Shown: one piece after another, positions 14,843 to 21,140 of the stretch
How positions within the stretch are numbered: position 1 is the stretch's first letter
Layout: every line of letters begins with the position of its first letter
NCBI GenBank assembly: GCA_025361765.1
Contig: JANYJS010000027.1
Coordinates: forward strand, 1 to 64,000
Source: Bacillota bacterium
GTDB lineage: Bacteria > Bacillota > Clostridia > Peptostreptococcales > Anaerovoracaceae
DNA length: 64,000 nt
Direction of reading: 5' to 3'
Notes under the pieces: model-generated
Database searches by the model: none
Told to the model about the DNA's origin: nothing
The model's input: only the letters and a program-made list of their open reading frames with translations
Made by a program: the position numbers and the translations under genes

Positions 14843-16166
14843 TTGCTTCACCTCCAAGTTTTCTATAATCATCATAAAAATGCGGGTAAGATTTTTTAAT
14901 ACAGCCATATCCCTCAATTGTCACCGGCTGATTGCAGCCACAAGCTGCTATAGAAAGTGCCATAACAATGCGATGATCGTTATAGCCACTTGCTGTTCCA
15001 CCTTGGATTTCCCCTTTGCCATGGATAATTAAGCTATCACAGTCAATCTTAACATCTGCGCCAATTAGATTCAGAACCTCTGCTGTTGCTGCGAGCCTAT
15101 CGCTCTCCTTAAATCTCAGCCTGCCGGCATTTATAATCTTCGTTTTACCCCTGGCAAAAGCGGCAACCACAGCAAGAACAGGAATGATATCCGGAATCTG
15201 AGTTGCATCTATCAATATACCGGAAAGCTGATTTTTTGAAGCCCTAATACCGCCGTCCTTAAATGTCTCAATATTTGCCCCAAATTTACGCAATATATCC
15301 ATTATGGCCGCATCACCTTGTTTTGATGCTGGATCCATGCCATTAACGACGATATCGCAGCCCATTGCCCCAGCACAAAGCCAGGCGGCAGTCTGGGACC
15401 AGTCTCCTTCTACATTGTAGCCCTTGCTTTGGTACTTCTGATTACCCCGAATGGTATAGATCCCATCTTTTTCTGCAACTGTAATACCAAAACTTTTCAT
15501 AACCGAAAGCGTAACATCTACGTATCCCTTTGATTCAAATGGCGCTTTCACGGTAACAACAGAATCGCCCTCACAAATCGGCAAAGCCAGCAGCAGTCCC
15601 GTGATATATTGGGAACTGACGGAACCGGAAATGGTATAAGTGCCGCTAGTAAGCCTGCCTCGCATGTAAAGTGGCAAATTCGCTTCCTTGTCATGATTAA
15701 ATACAATGCCTTTTTCGCCAAGTACCTCAAAATAGGTTTGAAGAGGTCTTCTCGGCAGCTGTCCCTCCCCAGTGAAGCGCACATTGACACCCAAAGCTGC
15801 AGCCACGGGAATCATAAACCGAAGCGTAGATCCTGACTCACCGCAATTAATATCCACAGCCGCCGCATCGACAACGCGACTGCTATCATTTATTTCGCTG
15901 ATAGCACTGGAGCCATTGATACTATTCAGGCCATTGTTGCCACCGATGCCATTGACAACTATGCAATTATGCTCAAATCTCACTTGGGCGCCGATGGCCC
16001 TCAGAGCCAAGGCAGTTGCCTTGATATCCTCAGATAGAACGATATTTGTGATTTTGCTTTCTCCAAAGGCCAAAGCTGCGCAAATCAATGCTCTATGTAG
16101 AACACTTTTTGAAGGAACCGCATCTATGCTTCCGTAAAGTAGCTTTGGACTGATTTTCATATCCAT
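14820..16166 (-). CDS. aroA: EPSP synthase (3-phosphoshikimate 1-carboxyvinyltransferase)
   Basis: 448 residues. The phosphoenolpyruvate and shikimate-phosphate site is seen in VPSKSVLHRALICAA near the N-terminus, NCGESGSTLRFMIPVAAAL (in place of the GNAGTAMR of class I enzymes), SVSSQYITGLL, and the C-terminal GRLRFKESDRL and YNDHRIVMAL. The variant GESGSTLRF is usual in clostridial AroA. GAGG lies seven bases before the first ATG. It is followed by overlapping aroC. Confidence 0.95.
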   Translation of the reverse strand: MDMKISPKLLYGSIDAVPSKSVLHRALICAALAFGESKITNIVLSEDIKATALALRAIGAQVRFEHNCIVVNGIGGNNGLNSINGSSAISEINDSSRVVDAAAVDINCGESGSTLRFMIPVAAALGVNVRFTGEGQLPRRPLQTYFEVLGEKGIVFNHDKEANLPLYMRGRLTSGTYTISGSVSSQYITGLLLALPICEGDSVVTVKAPFESKGYVDVTLSVMKSFGITVAEKDGIYTIRGNQKYQSKGYNVEGDWSQTAAWLCAGAMGCDIVVNGMDPASKQGDAAIMDILRKFGANIETFKDGGIRASKNQLSGILIDATQIPDIIPVLAVVAAFARGKTKIINAGRLRFKESDRLAATAEVLNLIGADVKIDCDSLIIHGKGEIQGGTASGYNDHRIVMALSIAACGCNQPVTIEGYGCIKKSYPHFYDDYRKLGGEANGIDTRE

Positions 16167-17391: not shown

Positions 17392-18408
17392 TTACAGAAC
17401 GGTTCTCCCAACAGCCTCCGACACCTTCTGCATCTTCGGCATCAATTGATGAAACTGCTCCGGCGTAATGGACTGTGCACCGTCAGACAAGGCGTTTTTG
17501 GGATCATTATGCACCTCGATGATAAGTCCATCTGCGCCAGCCGCAATTGCCGCGAGGGTTAGGGGCTCCACCAGATAAGAAAGCCCGGCCGCATGGGAAG
17601 GATCTATGACTACAGGTAAATGGCTGAGTTTCTTAAGAATCGGTACAGCACTGATATCCAGTGTATTTCGCGTTTGCGTTTCAAAGGTCCTGATTCCGCG
17701 TTCACACAATATAACGTTTTCATTGCCGCCGCTCATAATGTATTCCGCCGACATGAGCATCTCTTCTATTGTATTTGAAAACCCGCGTTTCAATAGAATT
17801 GGTTTTTTTAATTGGCCCAGCTGCTTGAGCAACTCATAGTTTTGCATATTTCTTGAACCCACCTGTATGATATCCACATAATCATTGAATAAATCTATAT
17901 ACGAAGGATTGGTGATCTCAGAGACCACAGGGAGTCCCGTCACTCTTCTAGCCATGTCAAGGAGCATCAGCCCTTCAGATTTTAGACCTTGAAAAGAATA
18001 AGGCGATGTTCGGGGTTTGAATGCCCCACCACGAAGCAGGGTGGCTCCGGATTTTTTGATTTCTTTGGCAATCAGGATAATTTGTTCTTCAGATTCGACT
18101 GAGCAAGGCCCAGCGATCACCGGAATTTTATTTCCACCAAACTCGATGCCATTCACGGAAACAATGGTATTTTCGGGGTGAAATTTTCTGTTTGATTTTT
18201 TATAAGGTTCCTGAACTAAAATGACCTTGTCGACGCAAGGCATCATGGCCAGCACATCCTTATCCAGTTCCGACGTATCTCCCACTAAACCGATAACAGT
18301 TGTACCAGAGCCATAAATGGGGCTTGCCGTGATACCATGTCCACTGATCCATTCATTAAGTTCCATCACTTCTTCATAAGCGACGCCGTTTTTTAGGACA
18401 ATAATCAT
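17392..18408 (-). CDS. aroF: DAHP synthase, type I-beta, operon-proximal copy
   Basis: About 338 residues from the ATG at 18408; AAAGGT is nine bases upstream of it, whereas the ATG at 18417 abuts that site, and the chosen start (MIIVLKNG) matches the paralogue (MIIILKRN). It has the same N-terminal ferredoxin-like domain and barrel motifs: GPCSVESEEQ, RGGAFKPRTSPYSFQG, ILCERGIRTFE and DPSHAAG. It is the first structural gene behind the T-box leader, so it is the copy most directly under tRNA-Phe control. Confidence 0.95.
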   Translation of the reverse strand: MIIVLKNGVAYEEVMELNEWISGHGITASPIYGSGTTVIGLVGDTSELDKDVLAMMPCVDKVILVQEPYKKSNRKFHPENTIVSVNGIEFGGNKIPVIAGPCSVESEEQIILIAKEIKKSGATLLRGGAFKPRTSPYSFQGLKSEGLMLLDMARRVTGLPVVSEITNPSYIDLFNDYVDIIQVGSRNMQNYELLKQLGQLKKPILLKRGFSNTIEEMLMSAEYIMSGGNENVILCERGIRTFETQTRNTLDISAVPILKKLSHLPVVIDPSHAAGLSYLVEPLTLAAIAAGADGLIIEVHNDPKNALSDGAQSITPEQFHQLMPKMQKVSEAVGRTVL

Positions 18409-18508
18409 AATTCTCATACCTTTCTCATTTCAGCCGCTTACAAAGAGCCTCTTAGACCCGAGCAAAAAGTCTCTTTTCTCTATTGTAATACAGCTTTTAC
18501 AAAAACAC

Positions 18509-18795
18509 AAAAAAAGCTTCTCCCAATACTGGGGCGAAGCTTTAAAAAAATCTCGCGGTACCACCCAATTTTACAGTAATTTACTGCATCTTTATTCGTG
18601 TACAATCATACACTACCCCTCTAACGGTCGGCAGCCGGCAGAACCTACTGAATAATTTCAGCTCTGCAACTCACAAGGGAACTTCAGGAACAATCGTTTC
18701 ACTACCGTCATCTCACCACCGACGGCTCTCTGTCAGGTTATGCACCCGGGCGCAAGGCCAAGCTTAAACTGAACTCTACTTCCTTGATCATGGTT
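18509..18795 (-). ncRNA. T-box leader, predicted phenylalanine-specific
   Basis: The leader runs from a promoter near 18800 to a terminator. The conserved T-box sequence (TGGGTGGTACCGCG) is at 18554-18567. It is followed by a terminator whose stem pairs AAAGCTTC with GAAGCTTT (18509-18543) and ends in a T run. Stem I has the AGTAGA loop-E strand on its 5' side and the distal AGAGAGCC segment. Pairing CAAGG with CCTTG and GTTCAG with CTGAA leaves TTC at 18679-18681 in the specifier position, a phenylalanine codon. Uncharged tRNA-Phe would then favour antitermination of the aromatic operon. T-box identity is certain; the specifier is a hand-folded inference. Confidence 0.92.
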
Positions 18796-18801
18796 TTGCT
18801 T

Positions 18802-19162: not shown

Positions 19163-19444
19163 ATGATGAGATATGAAGGTTTTGGTTATGGCCACATGGG
19201 TTTATTGGGAGGAGTATTTATGTTTTTTATTGCCTTGGCAGTTATAGGTCTGTTAATTTATCTGGTTGTTCTGTTATCTAGAAATGCTAAAATGCATTCA
19301 GGTGTTTCCAGTCATTATGTAGAGAAAGCCCCGAATACACAGAACTTGAATAACGCTTTATCCATTCTTAGCGAAAGATATGCAAGAGGCGAAGTCAATG
19401 ATGAAGAATATGCCAGAAAAAAAGAAGCTTTGTTAAAACTATAG
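19163..19444 (+). CDS. Small membrane protein with SHOCT domain
   Basis: 93 residues. A glycine-rich start leads into one membrane segment (about 14-40). The C-terminal third, ALSILSERYARGEVNDEEYA, is a SHOCT motif, a short helical module found at the ends of many bacterial proteins and thought to mediate oligomerisation or regulation. AAAGGAG lies upstream of the ATG. A copper-chaperone-like gene follows in the same direction; SHOCT membrane proteins often accompany metal-transport genes. Its last codons and stop are duplicated just downstream. Confidence 0.8.
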   Translation: MMRYEGFGYGHMGLLGGVFMFFIALAVIGLLIYLVVLLSRNAKMHSGVSSHYVEKAPNTQNLNNALSILSERYARGEVNDEEYARKKEALLKL

Positions 19445-19487
19445 AAACTTTAGAAACTAAAGAAGCTTTGTTAAAACTATAGAAACT
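19421..19487. repeat. Exact 29-bp duplication of the SHOCT gene 3' end
   Basis: The bases 19421-19449, which code for the last residues and the stop codon, recur without change at 19459-19487 (38-base period). A partial fragment TAGAAACT lies between. The second copy is non-coding. Confidence 0.9.
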
Positions 19488-19517
19488 GTTGTATTCGATT
19501 AAATAGGAGGGTTCAAT

Positions 19518-19730
19518 ATGTCAAAAGAATCAATCACATTAAATGTTGAAGGTATGTCCTGTAGCCATTGTGAAAACAGAGTCAAAAATTCGGTTGGTGA
19601 CCTTGATGGCGTTTCCAGCGTTACAGTAAGTCTGGATGACAAAACCGTAACCATCGAGTACGATGATGAGGTTACCGGGTTGGATTTGGTCAAAGAGACC
19701 ATCGAAGATCAAGGATATGAAGTGAAATAA
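19518..19730 (+). CDS. Heavy-metal-associated domain protein (CopZ-like)
   Basis: 70 residues, a single HMA fold. The metal-binding motif GMSCSHC is at about residues 12-18, and the end DQGYEVK is typical of copper chaperones. It should bind Cu(I) or a similar soft metal and pass it to a P-type ATPase, none of which is in this window. AGGAGG precedes the ATG. It ends before a bidirectional terminator. Confidence 0.92.
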   Translation: MSKESITLNVEGMSCSHCENRVKNSVGDLDGVSSVTVSLDDKTVTIEYDDEVTGLDLVKETIEDQGYEVK

Positions 19731-19832: not shown

Positions 19833-20522
19833 CTATTTTCTTGAATTAGGGACATCTGCCGTATTATCATAGCCATTCATTTCCCAATATCCCTGATAAT
19901 AGGCGTTATCAGACAGTTCAATTTCGCTCACCCATCGTGCCCATTTGTAGCCCAGTTTGTCTTCAGCTACGACTATGAATGGAAACCCAAGTGAAGGCGG
20001 AAGCGTAATTCCGTTTGAAGAATAGGCCAGCAACATATCTTTATCGAGAATCGTTTGTAAAGGCATCGACGTCGTATAACCATCCACACAATGGAAAATG
20101 ACAGTATTAGCCGTATTTTTTGCAGCGGCTAATTCAATAACATCTTTTAGCAGCACGCCCTTCCAAAGCACCGTCGCATCCCACCCTTCAACGCAATGAA
20201 GCGTAATTAGCTTCTCATAGCTGGTCAGCGCTAACACATCGTCATAGCTCAGGGAAAGAGATTTATCTACCAGACCATCGACTTTGAGAGAGTAGGTACC
20301 GATGTCGACATTCTGTATGCCTTTTATGGAATTATCTCTTGGCCCAACAGATGGATCGAGTCTAACTCCTTTATAATCCCTGATTTCAGTGGCAGCATAG
20401 CGATCCTGAGTCGCTGACGAATTGCCGTCATTTCCGGGCAGAACAAAGCCAAATATCGAACAGGCGGATAAAAGAACTAGGCTTAAAATCATAATGACTA
20501 AAAGTTTAATTTTTTTCATCAT
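19833..20522 (-). CDS. Molybdopterin-binding oxidoreductase-like lipoprotein
   Basis: 229 residues. A lipoprotein signal peptide ends in LLSAC (Cys at about 21). The mature part is a sulfite-oxidase-type molybdopterin domain (PF00174), with the conserved Cys in LHCVEGWDATVLWKG that ligates molybdenum, and HCVDGYTTSM and LGYKWARWVSEIEL further on. It would be anchored on the outer face of the membrane. It has neither a haem domain nor a dimerisation domain. The natural electron partner is not in view, though a ferredoxin gene lies upstream. Confidence 0.88.
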   Translation of the reverse strand: MMKKIKLLVIMILSLVLLSACSIFGFVLPGNDGNSSATQDRYAATEIRDYKGVRLDPSVGPRDNSIKGIQNVDIGTYSLKVDGLVDKSLSLSYDDVLALTSYEKLITLHCVEGWDATVLWKGVLLKDVIELAAAKNTANTVIFHCVDGYTTSMPLQTILDKDMLLAYSSNGITLPPSLGFPFIVVAEDKLGYKWARWVSEIELSDNAYYQGYWEMNGYDNTADVPNSRK

Positions 20523-20605: not shown

Positions 20606-20797
20606 TTATTTCGCTTTGATTGTGTTAATACCAAAAGGAATATAAAGTGGGCACACACCTATAAGGGCCGTCAGTAAAGGTATGAAACCAATCAGCGCAA
20701 GAAACCTAAGATTACCCTGAAGTATAAAGAATAAGCTAAAGAATACTAAGGCTAAAACGATTCTAACTATTTTGTCTGTACTACCAATATTTTTCAT
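20606..20797 (-). CDS. DUF2892 small membrane protein
   Basis: 63 residues from the ATG at 20797, which has AAGGAGG eight bases upstream; a longer frame to 20890 would overlap the ferredoxin gene. It starts MKNIGSTDKIVRIVLAL, has two membrane segments with a short turn, and ends with the CPLYIPFGINT motif that defines DUF2892. This domain is often found fused to or beside rhodanese domains in sulfide or metal stress genes. It follows the ferredoxin gene in one transcript. Confidence 0.85.
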   Translation of the reverse strand: MKNIGSTDKIVRIVLALVFFSLFFILQGNLRFLALIGFIPLLTALIGVCPLYIPFGINTIKAK

Positions 20798-20847
20798 GAC
20801 CATTTCCTCCTTTTCCATGATTTGCAGATTTCGACTGCTCAATTGAT

Positions 20848-21030
20848 TTATACTGCTTGAAATACCCCGTAAGGGCACGCGCGCATGCACTTACCACATT
20901 CTATGCATTTTTCTTCATCAATAACCGGCGCTGCATTTCCATTCTGTGAAATGGCATCTACTGGACAAATTCCCATTGCAGGGCATCGATGGTTTTGAGG
21001 GCATCTCTTCGCCTCTACTTGTAACATCAT
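20848..21030 (-). CDS. 4Fe-4S ferredoxin-like protein
   Basis: 60 residues. One canonical cluster site, CIECGKCMRACPYGVF, lies in the C-terminal half. The N-terminal half has cysteines at wider spacing (CPQNHRCPAMGICPVDAI), so whether a second cluster forms is unclear. AAAGGAG precedes two adjacent ATGs. It is the first gene behind a palindromic operator and runs with DUF2892, and perhaps with the molybdopterin lipoprotein. Confidence 0.88.
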   Translation of the reverse strand: MMLQVEAKRCPQNHRCPAMGICPVDAISQNGNAAPVIDEEKCIECGKCMRACPYGVFQAV

Positions 21031-21112: not shown

Positions 21113-21140
21113 ATAATATACCCAGGCTGGGTATATTCAA
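21113..21140 (-). promoter_or_regulatory. Promoter with perfect operator palindrome in the spacer
   Basis: On the minus strand TTGAAT (21135-21140), a 16-base spacer, and TATTAT (21113-21118). A 23-bp palindrome with one central base spans 21115-21137 (AATATACCCAG/CTGGGTATATT). The TATACCC...GGGTATA shape resembles operators of CsoR/FrmR-type repressors. A repressor bound here would block RNA polymerase. The regulator gene is not in this window. Confidence 0.8.

What the first reader, a model, noticed from the sequence alone, without database searches (positions are those of the whole stretch)
21113..21140. Operator palindrome exactly between -35 and -10 of a ferredoxin/DUF2892 unit
A perfect 23-bp palindrome (AATATACCCAG-G-CTGGGTATATT on the plus strand) fills the promoter spacer. 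Its TATACCC/GGGTATA shape is like that of CsoR/FrmR-family operators, and DUF2892 is often linked with rhodaneses in sulfide stress. It may mark a metal- or persulfide-sensing regulon including the nearby molybdopterin lipoprotein.
Basis: partly seen in the sequence, partly recalled or inferred. Interest (0 to 1): 0.55.

Follow-up and report, generated by a model that had tools for sequence, protein, structure and literature searches.

The report
Repressor site shared with selenocysteine genes
The palindrome is very probably the binding site of a small cysteine-carrying repressor, and the same site stands before the genes that let this bacterium make selenium-containing proteins, which suggests that a sulfur or redox signal switches that machinery on and off.

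Summary
The 23-bp perfect palindrome (window 21115-21137) is real and lies on a promoter-like TTGAAT-16-TATTAT. The host genome has exactly four TACCC-N5-GGGTA sites. All four are intergenic: (1) this ferredoxin / YgaP-like / Moco-lipoprotein unit; (2) just before the only CsoR/RcnR-family (PF02583) gene; (3) before tRNA-Sec-selD-selA-selB; (4) before a YruB-family glutaredoxin. All ten one-mismatch sites lie inside reading frames. In another family of the order (G078) the same operator heads a cluster of HesB-like selenoprotein, orthologous regulator, tRNA-Sec, selA and selB. In three further families it stands before YruB glutaredoxin next to the regulator, and in a fourth (two genomes) before thioredoxin. 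The regulator keeps the two sensor cysteines but has Tyr where copper CsoRs have His, a residue that varies His/Tyr within its clade. Best reading: a CstR-like thiol (persulfide or other sulfur/redox) repressor whose regulon here includes the selenocysteine machinery. The binding partner is well supported by inference; the effector is not shown. I found no paper linking this family to selenocysteine genes. Limits: no binding data; operator control of tRNA-Sec seen in only two genomes.

The parts
21115..21137 (.). operator: perfect 23-bp palindrome AATATACCCAG-G-CTGGGTATATT, core TACCC-N5-GGGTA at 21119-21133
21113..21140 (-). promoter-like -35 TTGAAT (21140-21135), 16 nt, -10 TATTAT (21118-21113), overlapped by the operator
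   Evidence: consensus match only
20848..21030 (-). 4Fe-4S ferredoxin-like protein, 60 aa; first gene behind the operator
20606..20800 (-).
19833..20522 (-). lipoprotein with oxidoreductase molybdopterin-binding domain (PF00174), probable last gene of the unit
   Evidence: membership of the unit inferred

Best explanation
The palindrome is an operator for the genome's only CsoR/RcnR-family (DUF156) protein (G000:C44:21256-21561, minus strand), a repressor that sits on TACCC-N5-GGGTA and blocks RNA polymerase at four promoters: its own, tRNA-Sec-selD-selA-selB, a YruB-family glutaredoxin, and the ferredoxin/YgaP-like/Moco-lipoprotein unit of the window. The protein works like CstR: two conserved cysteines (Cys44, Cys73) in place of a Cys-His-Cys copper site react with sulfane sulfur (persulfide, perhaps its selenium analogue) or another thiol oxidant, cross-link between subunits and release the DNA, so that thiol/selenol redox proteins and the machinery that makes selenoproteins are made together. 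Shown by sequence: the sites, their positions, the residues, the conserved linkage to redox and sel genes. Inferred: binding by this protein, repression, the effector.
For: One PF02583 gene in the genome, E 1e-26. Four exact core sites, one 18-32 nt before that gene's start. All 4 exact sites are intergenic; of the 10 one-mismatch sites all 10 lie inside ORFs (1 in 1001 by chance). Three of the four extend to TATACCC-N5-GGGTATA, 0.002 expected from a first-order model of the window. In the host's family 14 of the 31 genomes with a PF02583 gene have an exact site 66-212 nt upstream of it. In the class, 21 of the 30 fetched orthologue loci have a site of at least 9 of 10 within 75 nt upstream and 22 of 30 have a thioredoxin WCGPC motif within 1.5 kb downstream. 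G078: operator, HesB-like selenoprotein, regulator, tRNA-Sec, selA, selB in a row. Operator before YruB glutaredoxin in G371, G308 and G404, next to the regulator; before thioredoxin in G206 and G145. Cys pair kept in 30 of 30 class orthologues while the copper-ligand position is Tyr in 16 and His in 14.
Against: No binding, expression or effector data. Copper-type CsoRs (Cys-His-Cys) of the same family have the same operator shape, so the site alone does not tell the effector. Exact operator within 600 nt before tRNA-Sec in only 1 of the 30 tRNA-Sec loci scanned (G078's lies further up), and a scan of 391 class genomes for a site 40-70 nt before a GGATGNG found a real tRNA-Sec only in G000. 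Most close orthologues live in genomes without a clear tRNA-Sec (7 of 8). Two of the 11 regulators of the nearest group (G501, G549) have no site of 9 or more within about 10 kb, and two others (G206, G145) lack the second Cys. The nearest solved structure by sequence is a copper CsoR, not a CstR.
Confidence: 0.6

Rival explanations
1. The regulator is a copper(I) sensor (true CsoR), and the four operons are a copper-stress regulon; thiol redox proteins and selenoproteins are induced because copper damages thiols and Fe-S clusters.
For: Same family and operator shape as Cys-His-Cys CsoRs of the host's family; the best solved-structure relative is Geobacillus CsoR 4m1p (the genus name is recalled); a CopZ-like HMA protein lies 1.4 kb away in the window.
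Against: His of the copper site is Tyr in the host protein; none of the four exact sites precedes a copper gene, and the HMA gene has no site; NCBIfam copper repressor RicR only 64 bits against a cut-off of 175. A copper-exporting ATPase was not searched for.
Confidence: 0.12
2. The regulator senses selenium itself (hydrogen selenide, perselenide or selenodithiol) and is a dedicated selenium switch for the Sec machinery.
For: The operator heads tRNA-Sec-selD-selA-selB in G000 and a HesB-like selenoprotein-regulator-selC-selA-selB cluster in G078 with TsoY and DsrE genes beside it.
Against: Most orthologues live in genomes without a clear tRNA-Sec, and most class orthologues lie next to thioredoxin genes, so the clade as a whole is not tied to selenium.
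Confidence: 0.17
3. The window palindrome is bound by an unrelated factor, and its likeness to the site before the CsoR-family gene is chance.
For: An exact 10-base core alone is not rare: the reversed control pattern gave 2 hits in this genome.
Against: Four of four exact sites intergenic, three of them sharing 14 fixed bases, one before the regulator gene; repeated linkage elsewhere.
Confidence: 0.07
4. The palindrome acts as RNA or as a terminator of the upstream sortase gene.
For: It can fold as a hairpin (-16.7 kcal/mol on the gene strand, z -1.5; -19.8, z -2.7 on the other).
Against: No T-run follows; not listed as a terminator, no Rfam match; a terminator-like site lies nearer to the sortase end (21258-21241); the same motif sits on promoter-like sequences elsewhere.
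Confidence: 0.02

Closest known systems
CstR (CsoR-like sulfurtransferase repressor) of Staphylococcus aureus and Enterococcus faecalis
   Same: DUF156 family; two reactive cysteines (C31/C60 in S. aureus, PMC5480029 passage; C31/C62 in E. faecalis, PMC9405070 passage) and, as recalled, no copper-ligand His (the solved chain 7mq1, which I recall as pneumococcal CstR, reads Cys-Asn-Cys); represses thiol/sulfur genes.
   Different: Known CstRs repress rhodaneses, sulfite exporters and sulfide:quinone oxidoreductases close by (PMC10318464, passage). Here the targets are scattered and include tRNA-Sec and selD/A/B, YruB glutaredoxin and a ferredoxin unit. Sequence is nearer to the CsoR 4m1p than to 7mq1.
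CsoR copper repressors (M. tuberculosis, Geobacillus, Streptomyces)
   Same: Family, and G/C-run pseudo-palindromic operator on or near -10/-35 (PMC10318464, passage).
   Different: Cys-His-Cys copper site; here Cys-Tyr-Cys; no copper gene behind an exact site.
TTHA1953 of Thermus thermophilus (PMC10318464, passages)
   Same: CsoR-family, two cysteines, thiol state changes DNA binding, scattered sulfur regulon.
   Different: Operator TACNNTACNNNNGTANNGTA without a G/C run; controls sulfur oxidation.
LysR_Se / HrsM selenium regulators (PMC5322559, PMC11097638, passages)
   Same: Transcription factors proposed for Sec and selenium genes.
   Different: LysR family; the passages name selenophosphate as likely effector; CsoR and DUF156 do not occur in PMC5322559.

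Membership tests
CsoR/RcnR family (DUF156, PF02583) | sequence match over the curated cut-off | tested here: met
   94.3 bits against 22.8, E 1e-26
CsoR/RcnR family (DUF156, PF02583) | pseudo-palindromic operator with a G/C run near the promoter | tested here: met
   TACCC-N5-GGGTA 18-32 nt before its own start and on promoter-like sequences; the run of C or G is 3-4 in the four sites, whereas PMC10318464 (passage) gives 4 or more for most of the family
CsoR/RcnR family (DUF156, PF02583) | binds that operator as an oligomer | not testable with these tools
   needs a binding assay
CstR (persulfide sensor) | two conserved cysteines at the sensor positions | tested here: met
   Cys44 and Cys73 (numbering of the 102-aa ORF); kept in 30 of 30 class orthologues
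CstR (persulfide sensor) | no His at the copper-ligand position | tested here: met
   Tyr in G000; but His in 14 of 30 orthologues
CstR (persulfide sensor) | controls rhodanese, sulfite exporter or sulfide:quinone oxidoreductase genes | tested here: inconclusive
   not among genes behind the four exact sites; YgaP-like TM present without a rhodanese
CstR (persulfide sensor) | DNA release by persulfide through Cys-Cys cross-link | not testable with these tools
   experiment needed
copper CsoR | Cys-His-Cys Cu(I) site | tested here: not met
   Cys-Tyr-Cys
copper CsoR | copper efflux genes behind the operator | tested here: not met
   none behind the four exact sites; a copper ATPase was not searched for
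FrmR (formaldehyde sensor) | NCBIfam FrmR equivalog cut-off | tested here: not met
   46.3 bits against 133

The most novel reading that the evidence does not exclude
A CsoR-family thiol switch directly gates the genetic-code expansion for selenocysteine (tRNA-Sec, SelD, SelA, SelB) in some Clostridia. The sulfur or selenium charge of the cell, read by two cysteines as persulfide or perselenide, decides whether UGA can be read as selenocysteine.
Probability: 0.4. Interest if true: 0.8.

Novelty: new variant of a known kind. Interest (0 to 1): 0.6.

Why it matters
How bacteria adjust the selenocysteine machinery to selenium and redox state is little known; the comparative study read here (passages of PMC5322559) proposes only a LysR-type regulator. 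A 100-residue regulator with a readable operator, tied to tRNA-Sec and sel genes in two families and to glutaredoxin or thioredoxin in others, makes the question testable with one purified protein and a few oligonucleotides. It would also extend the CsoR/CstR family from metal export and sulfide detoxification to control of an expanded genetic code, and gives a motif for finding thiol regulons in Clostridia.

Tried and rejected
Terminator, RNA element and chance were considered and rejected. FrmR and copper CsoR were rejected as filings for the host protein. A scan for operator directly before tRNA-Sec in 391 class genomes gave 8 genomes with pattern hits; of the 10 hit loci only G000's holds a tRNA-Sec. 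The 30 best tRNA-Sec loci of 46 genomes: 1 with an exact site within 600 nt upstream, no other over 8 of 10. The genus holds no second genome, so no close footprint of the window's own operator could be made; conservation of the ferredoxin/YgaP/Moco arrangement elsewhere was not tested. The eight genomes of L072-L079 were scanned for exact sites (8 of 8 have some) and regions were fetched around 13 of those sites, but the genes there were not worked through, apart from sites near the regulator. The order-level search brought mostly Cys-His-Cys proteins without the site upstream (3 of 30 loci with 9 or more, one of them G000 itself). Literature: searches gave no paper joining CsoR, CstR or DUF156 with selenocysteine genes; most hits were unrelated uses of the letters. 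Papers: passages only of PMC5322559, PMC10318464, PMC5480029, PMC9405070, PMC11097638, PMC7176365; listings and abstract beginnings of the rest. The main CstR reactivity paper (PMC8643695) is not held. No structure prediction was run.

Full report
Observation. The palindrome is as described, at window 21115-21137, and is the only 11-bp-arm perfect palindrome with a short spacer in the window. It covers the 16-nt spacer of a minus-strand TTGAAT/TATTAT promoter-like site and parts of both hexamers. Behind it lie a 60-aa 4Fe-4S protein, a 64-aa YgaP-like membrane protein and a Moco-domain lipoprotein.

Genome-wide. The host genome (G000, 2.23 Mb, 144 contigs) has four exact TACCC-N5-GGGTA sites (0.5 expected from a first-order model of the window; 2 hits for the reversed control pattern). 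Three of them keep TATACCC-N5-GGGTATA (0.002 expected). Their places: the window; 18-32 nt before the start of the single PF02583 gene, right behind what reads by eye as TTGACT-17-TATACT; C44:13431, 64 nt before tRNA-Sec, which is followed on the same strand by selD, selA and selB, again inside a spacer (TTTACA-17-TAAAAT by eye); and C77:4781, about 70 nt before an 80-aa glutaredoxin over the NCBIfam cut-off for the YruB family. The ten sites with one mismatch all lie inside ORFs (nine; the tenth, window 20863, inside the ferredoxin ORF).

The operator belongs to this regulator family. In the host's family, 14 of 31 genomes with a PF02583 gene have an exact site 66-212 nt upstream of it (my count from the tables; 60 genomes drawn). 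The family's fetched proteins are Cys-His-Cys (29 of 29 loci), like copper sensors. Class-wide, the 30 best orthologue loci of the 60 genomes that matched (391 searched) show a site of at least 9 of 10 within 75 nt upstream in 21 of 30 (exact in 10) and a thioredoxin motif downstream in 22 of 30; several of these are near relatives. By eye, RseC-like, cysteine synthase, glyA and TlpA/CcdA genes are also neighbours.

Linkage to selenium and thiol genes. A tree (68 rows, 88 columns, few columns) puts G000's protein in an 11-row group (SH-aLRT 90, below the program's 95 mark) inside a 32-row clade (SH-aLRT 98). Of those 11: G078 has operator, HesB-like protein with an in-frame UGA, regulator, tRNA-Sec, selA, selB in a row, with TsoY and DsrE genes upstream. 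G371, G308 and G404 have the operator before a YruB glutaredoxin 59-68% identical to G000's, in the last two shared with a DsbD/CcdA-like gene and a ResA-like gene that run the other way (the family search covered those two genes in G308 only). G206 and G145 have an exact site before a thioredoxin gene (in G145 about 400 nt before it, and 80 for G206); their regulators lack the second Cys (Cys-Tyr-Ser). G334 and G464 have a 9-of-10 site before the regulator itself. G501 and G549 have no site in the fetched 20 kb.

Residues. Cys44 and Cys73 of the host protein match the outer cysteines of the CsoR site; the middle ligand is Tyr. In the class set the middle position is Tyr in 16 and His in 14 of 30, with both Cys in 30 of 30. 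A copper site would need the His, so a ligand that comes and goes while the Cys pair, operator and thioredoxin neighbour stay argues for a thiol sensor. This is inference.

Against. Seven of the eight genomes holding close orthologues have no clear tRNA-Sec, and exact operator control of tRNA-Sec appears in only two genomes here. So the clade is thiol-linked in general, and selenium is a lineage-specific extension. The effector is unknown. Pairing of this protein with these operators is by location and conservation, not by binding.

Conclusion. The finding is real and larger than stated: a CsoR/CstR-type thiol-redox regulon that includes the selenocysteine machinery. Confidence that this protein binds these sites is about 0.85; that it is a sulfur, selenium or thiol sensor and not a metal sensor, about 0.65; for the whole model as stated, 0.6.

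Noticed in passing
L010 7855-8919 (G000:C44, selD): SelD itself has an in-frame UGA near its N-terminus, so selenophosphate synthetase is probably a selenoprotein in this organism.
   Followed up: partly
L010 7611-7850: Three direct copies, 85 bp apart, of a 52-base unit with an inner palindrome lie between tRNA-Sec and selD; not found in the window or other held loci except overlapping fetches of the same place.
   Followed up: partly
L010 about 15670-15740: Two copies of a different palindrome (core CCGATATCGG) between the regulator gene and a gene on the other strand that looks Fic-like by eye; perhaps the operator of another regulator.
   Followed up: no
window 18527-18800, minus strand: T-box leader (RF00230, 101.8 bits) upstream of the gene 17392-18417, a DAHP synthase by eye.
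   Followed up: partly
window 19163-19730, plus strand: SHOCT protein followed by a CopZ-like HMA protein; no operator copy before them.
   Followed up: no
L164 11389-12700 (G078): TsoY selenoprotein-family gene and a DsrE-like gene beside the regulator-selC-selA-selB cluster.
   Followed up: partly
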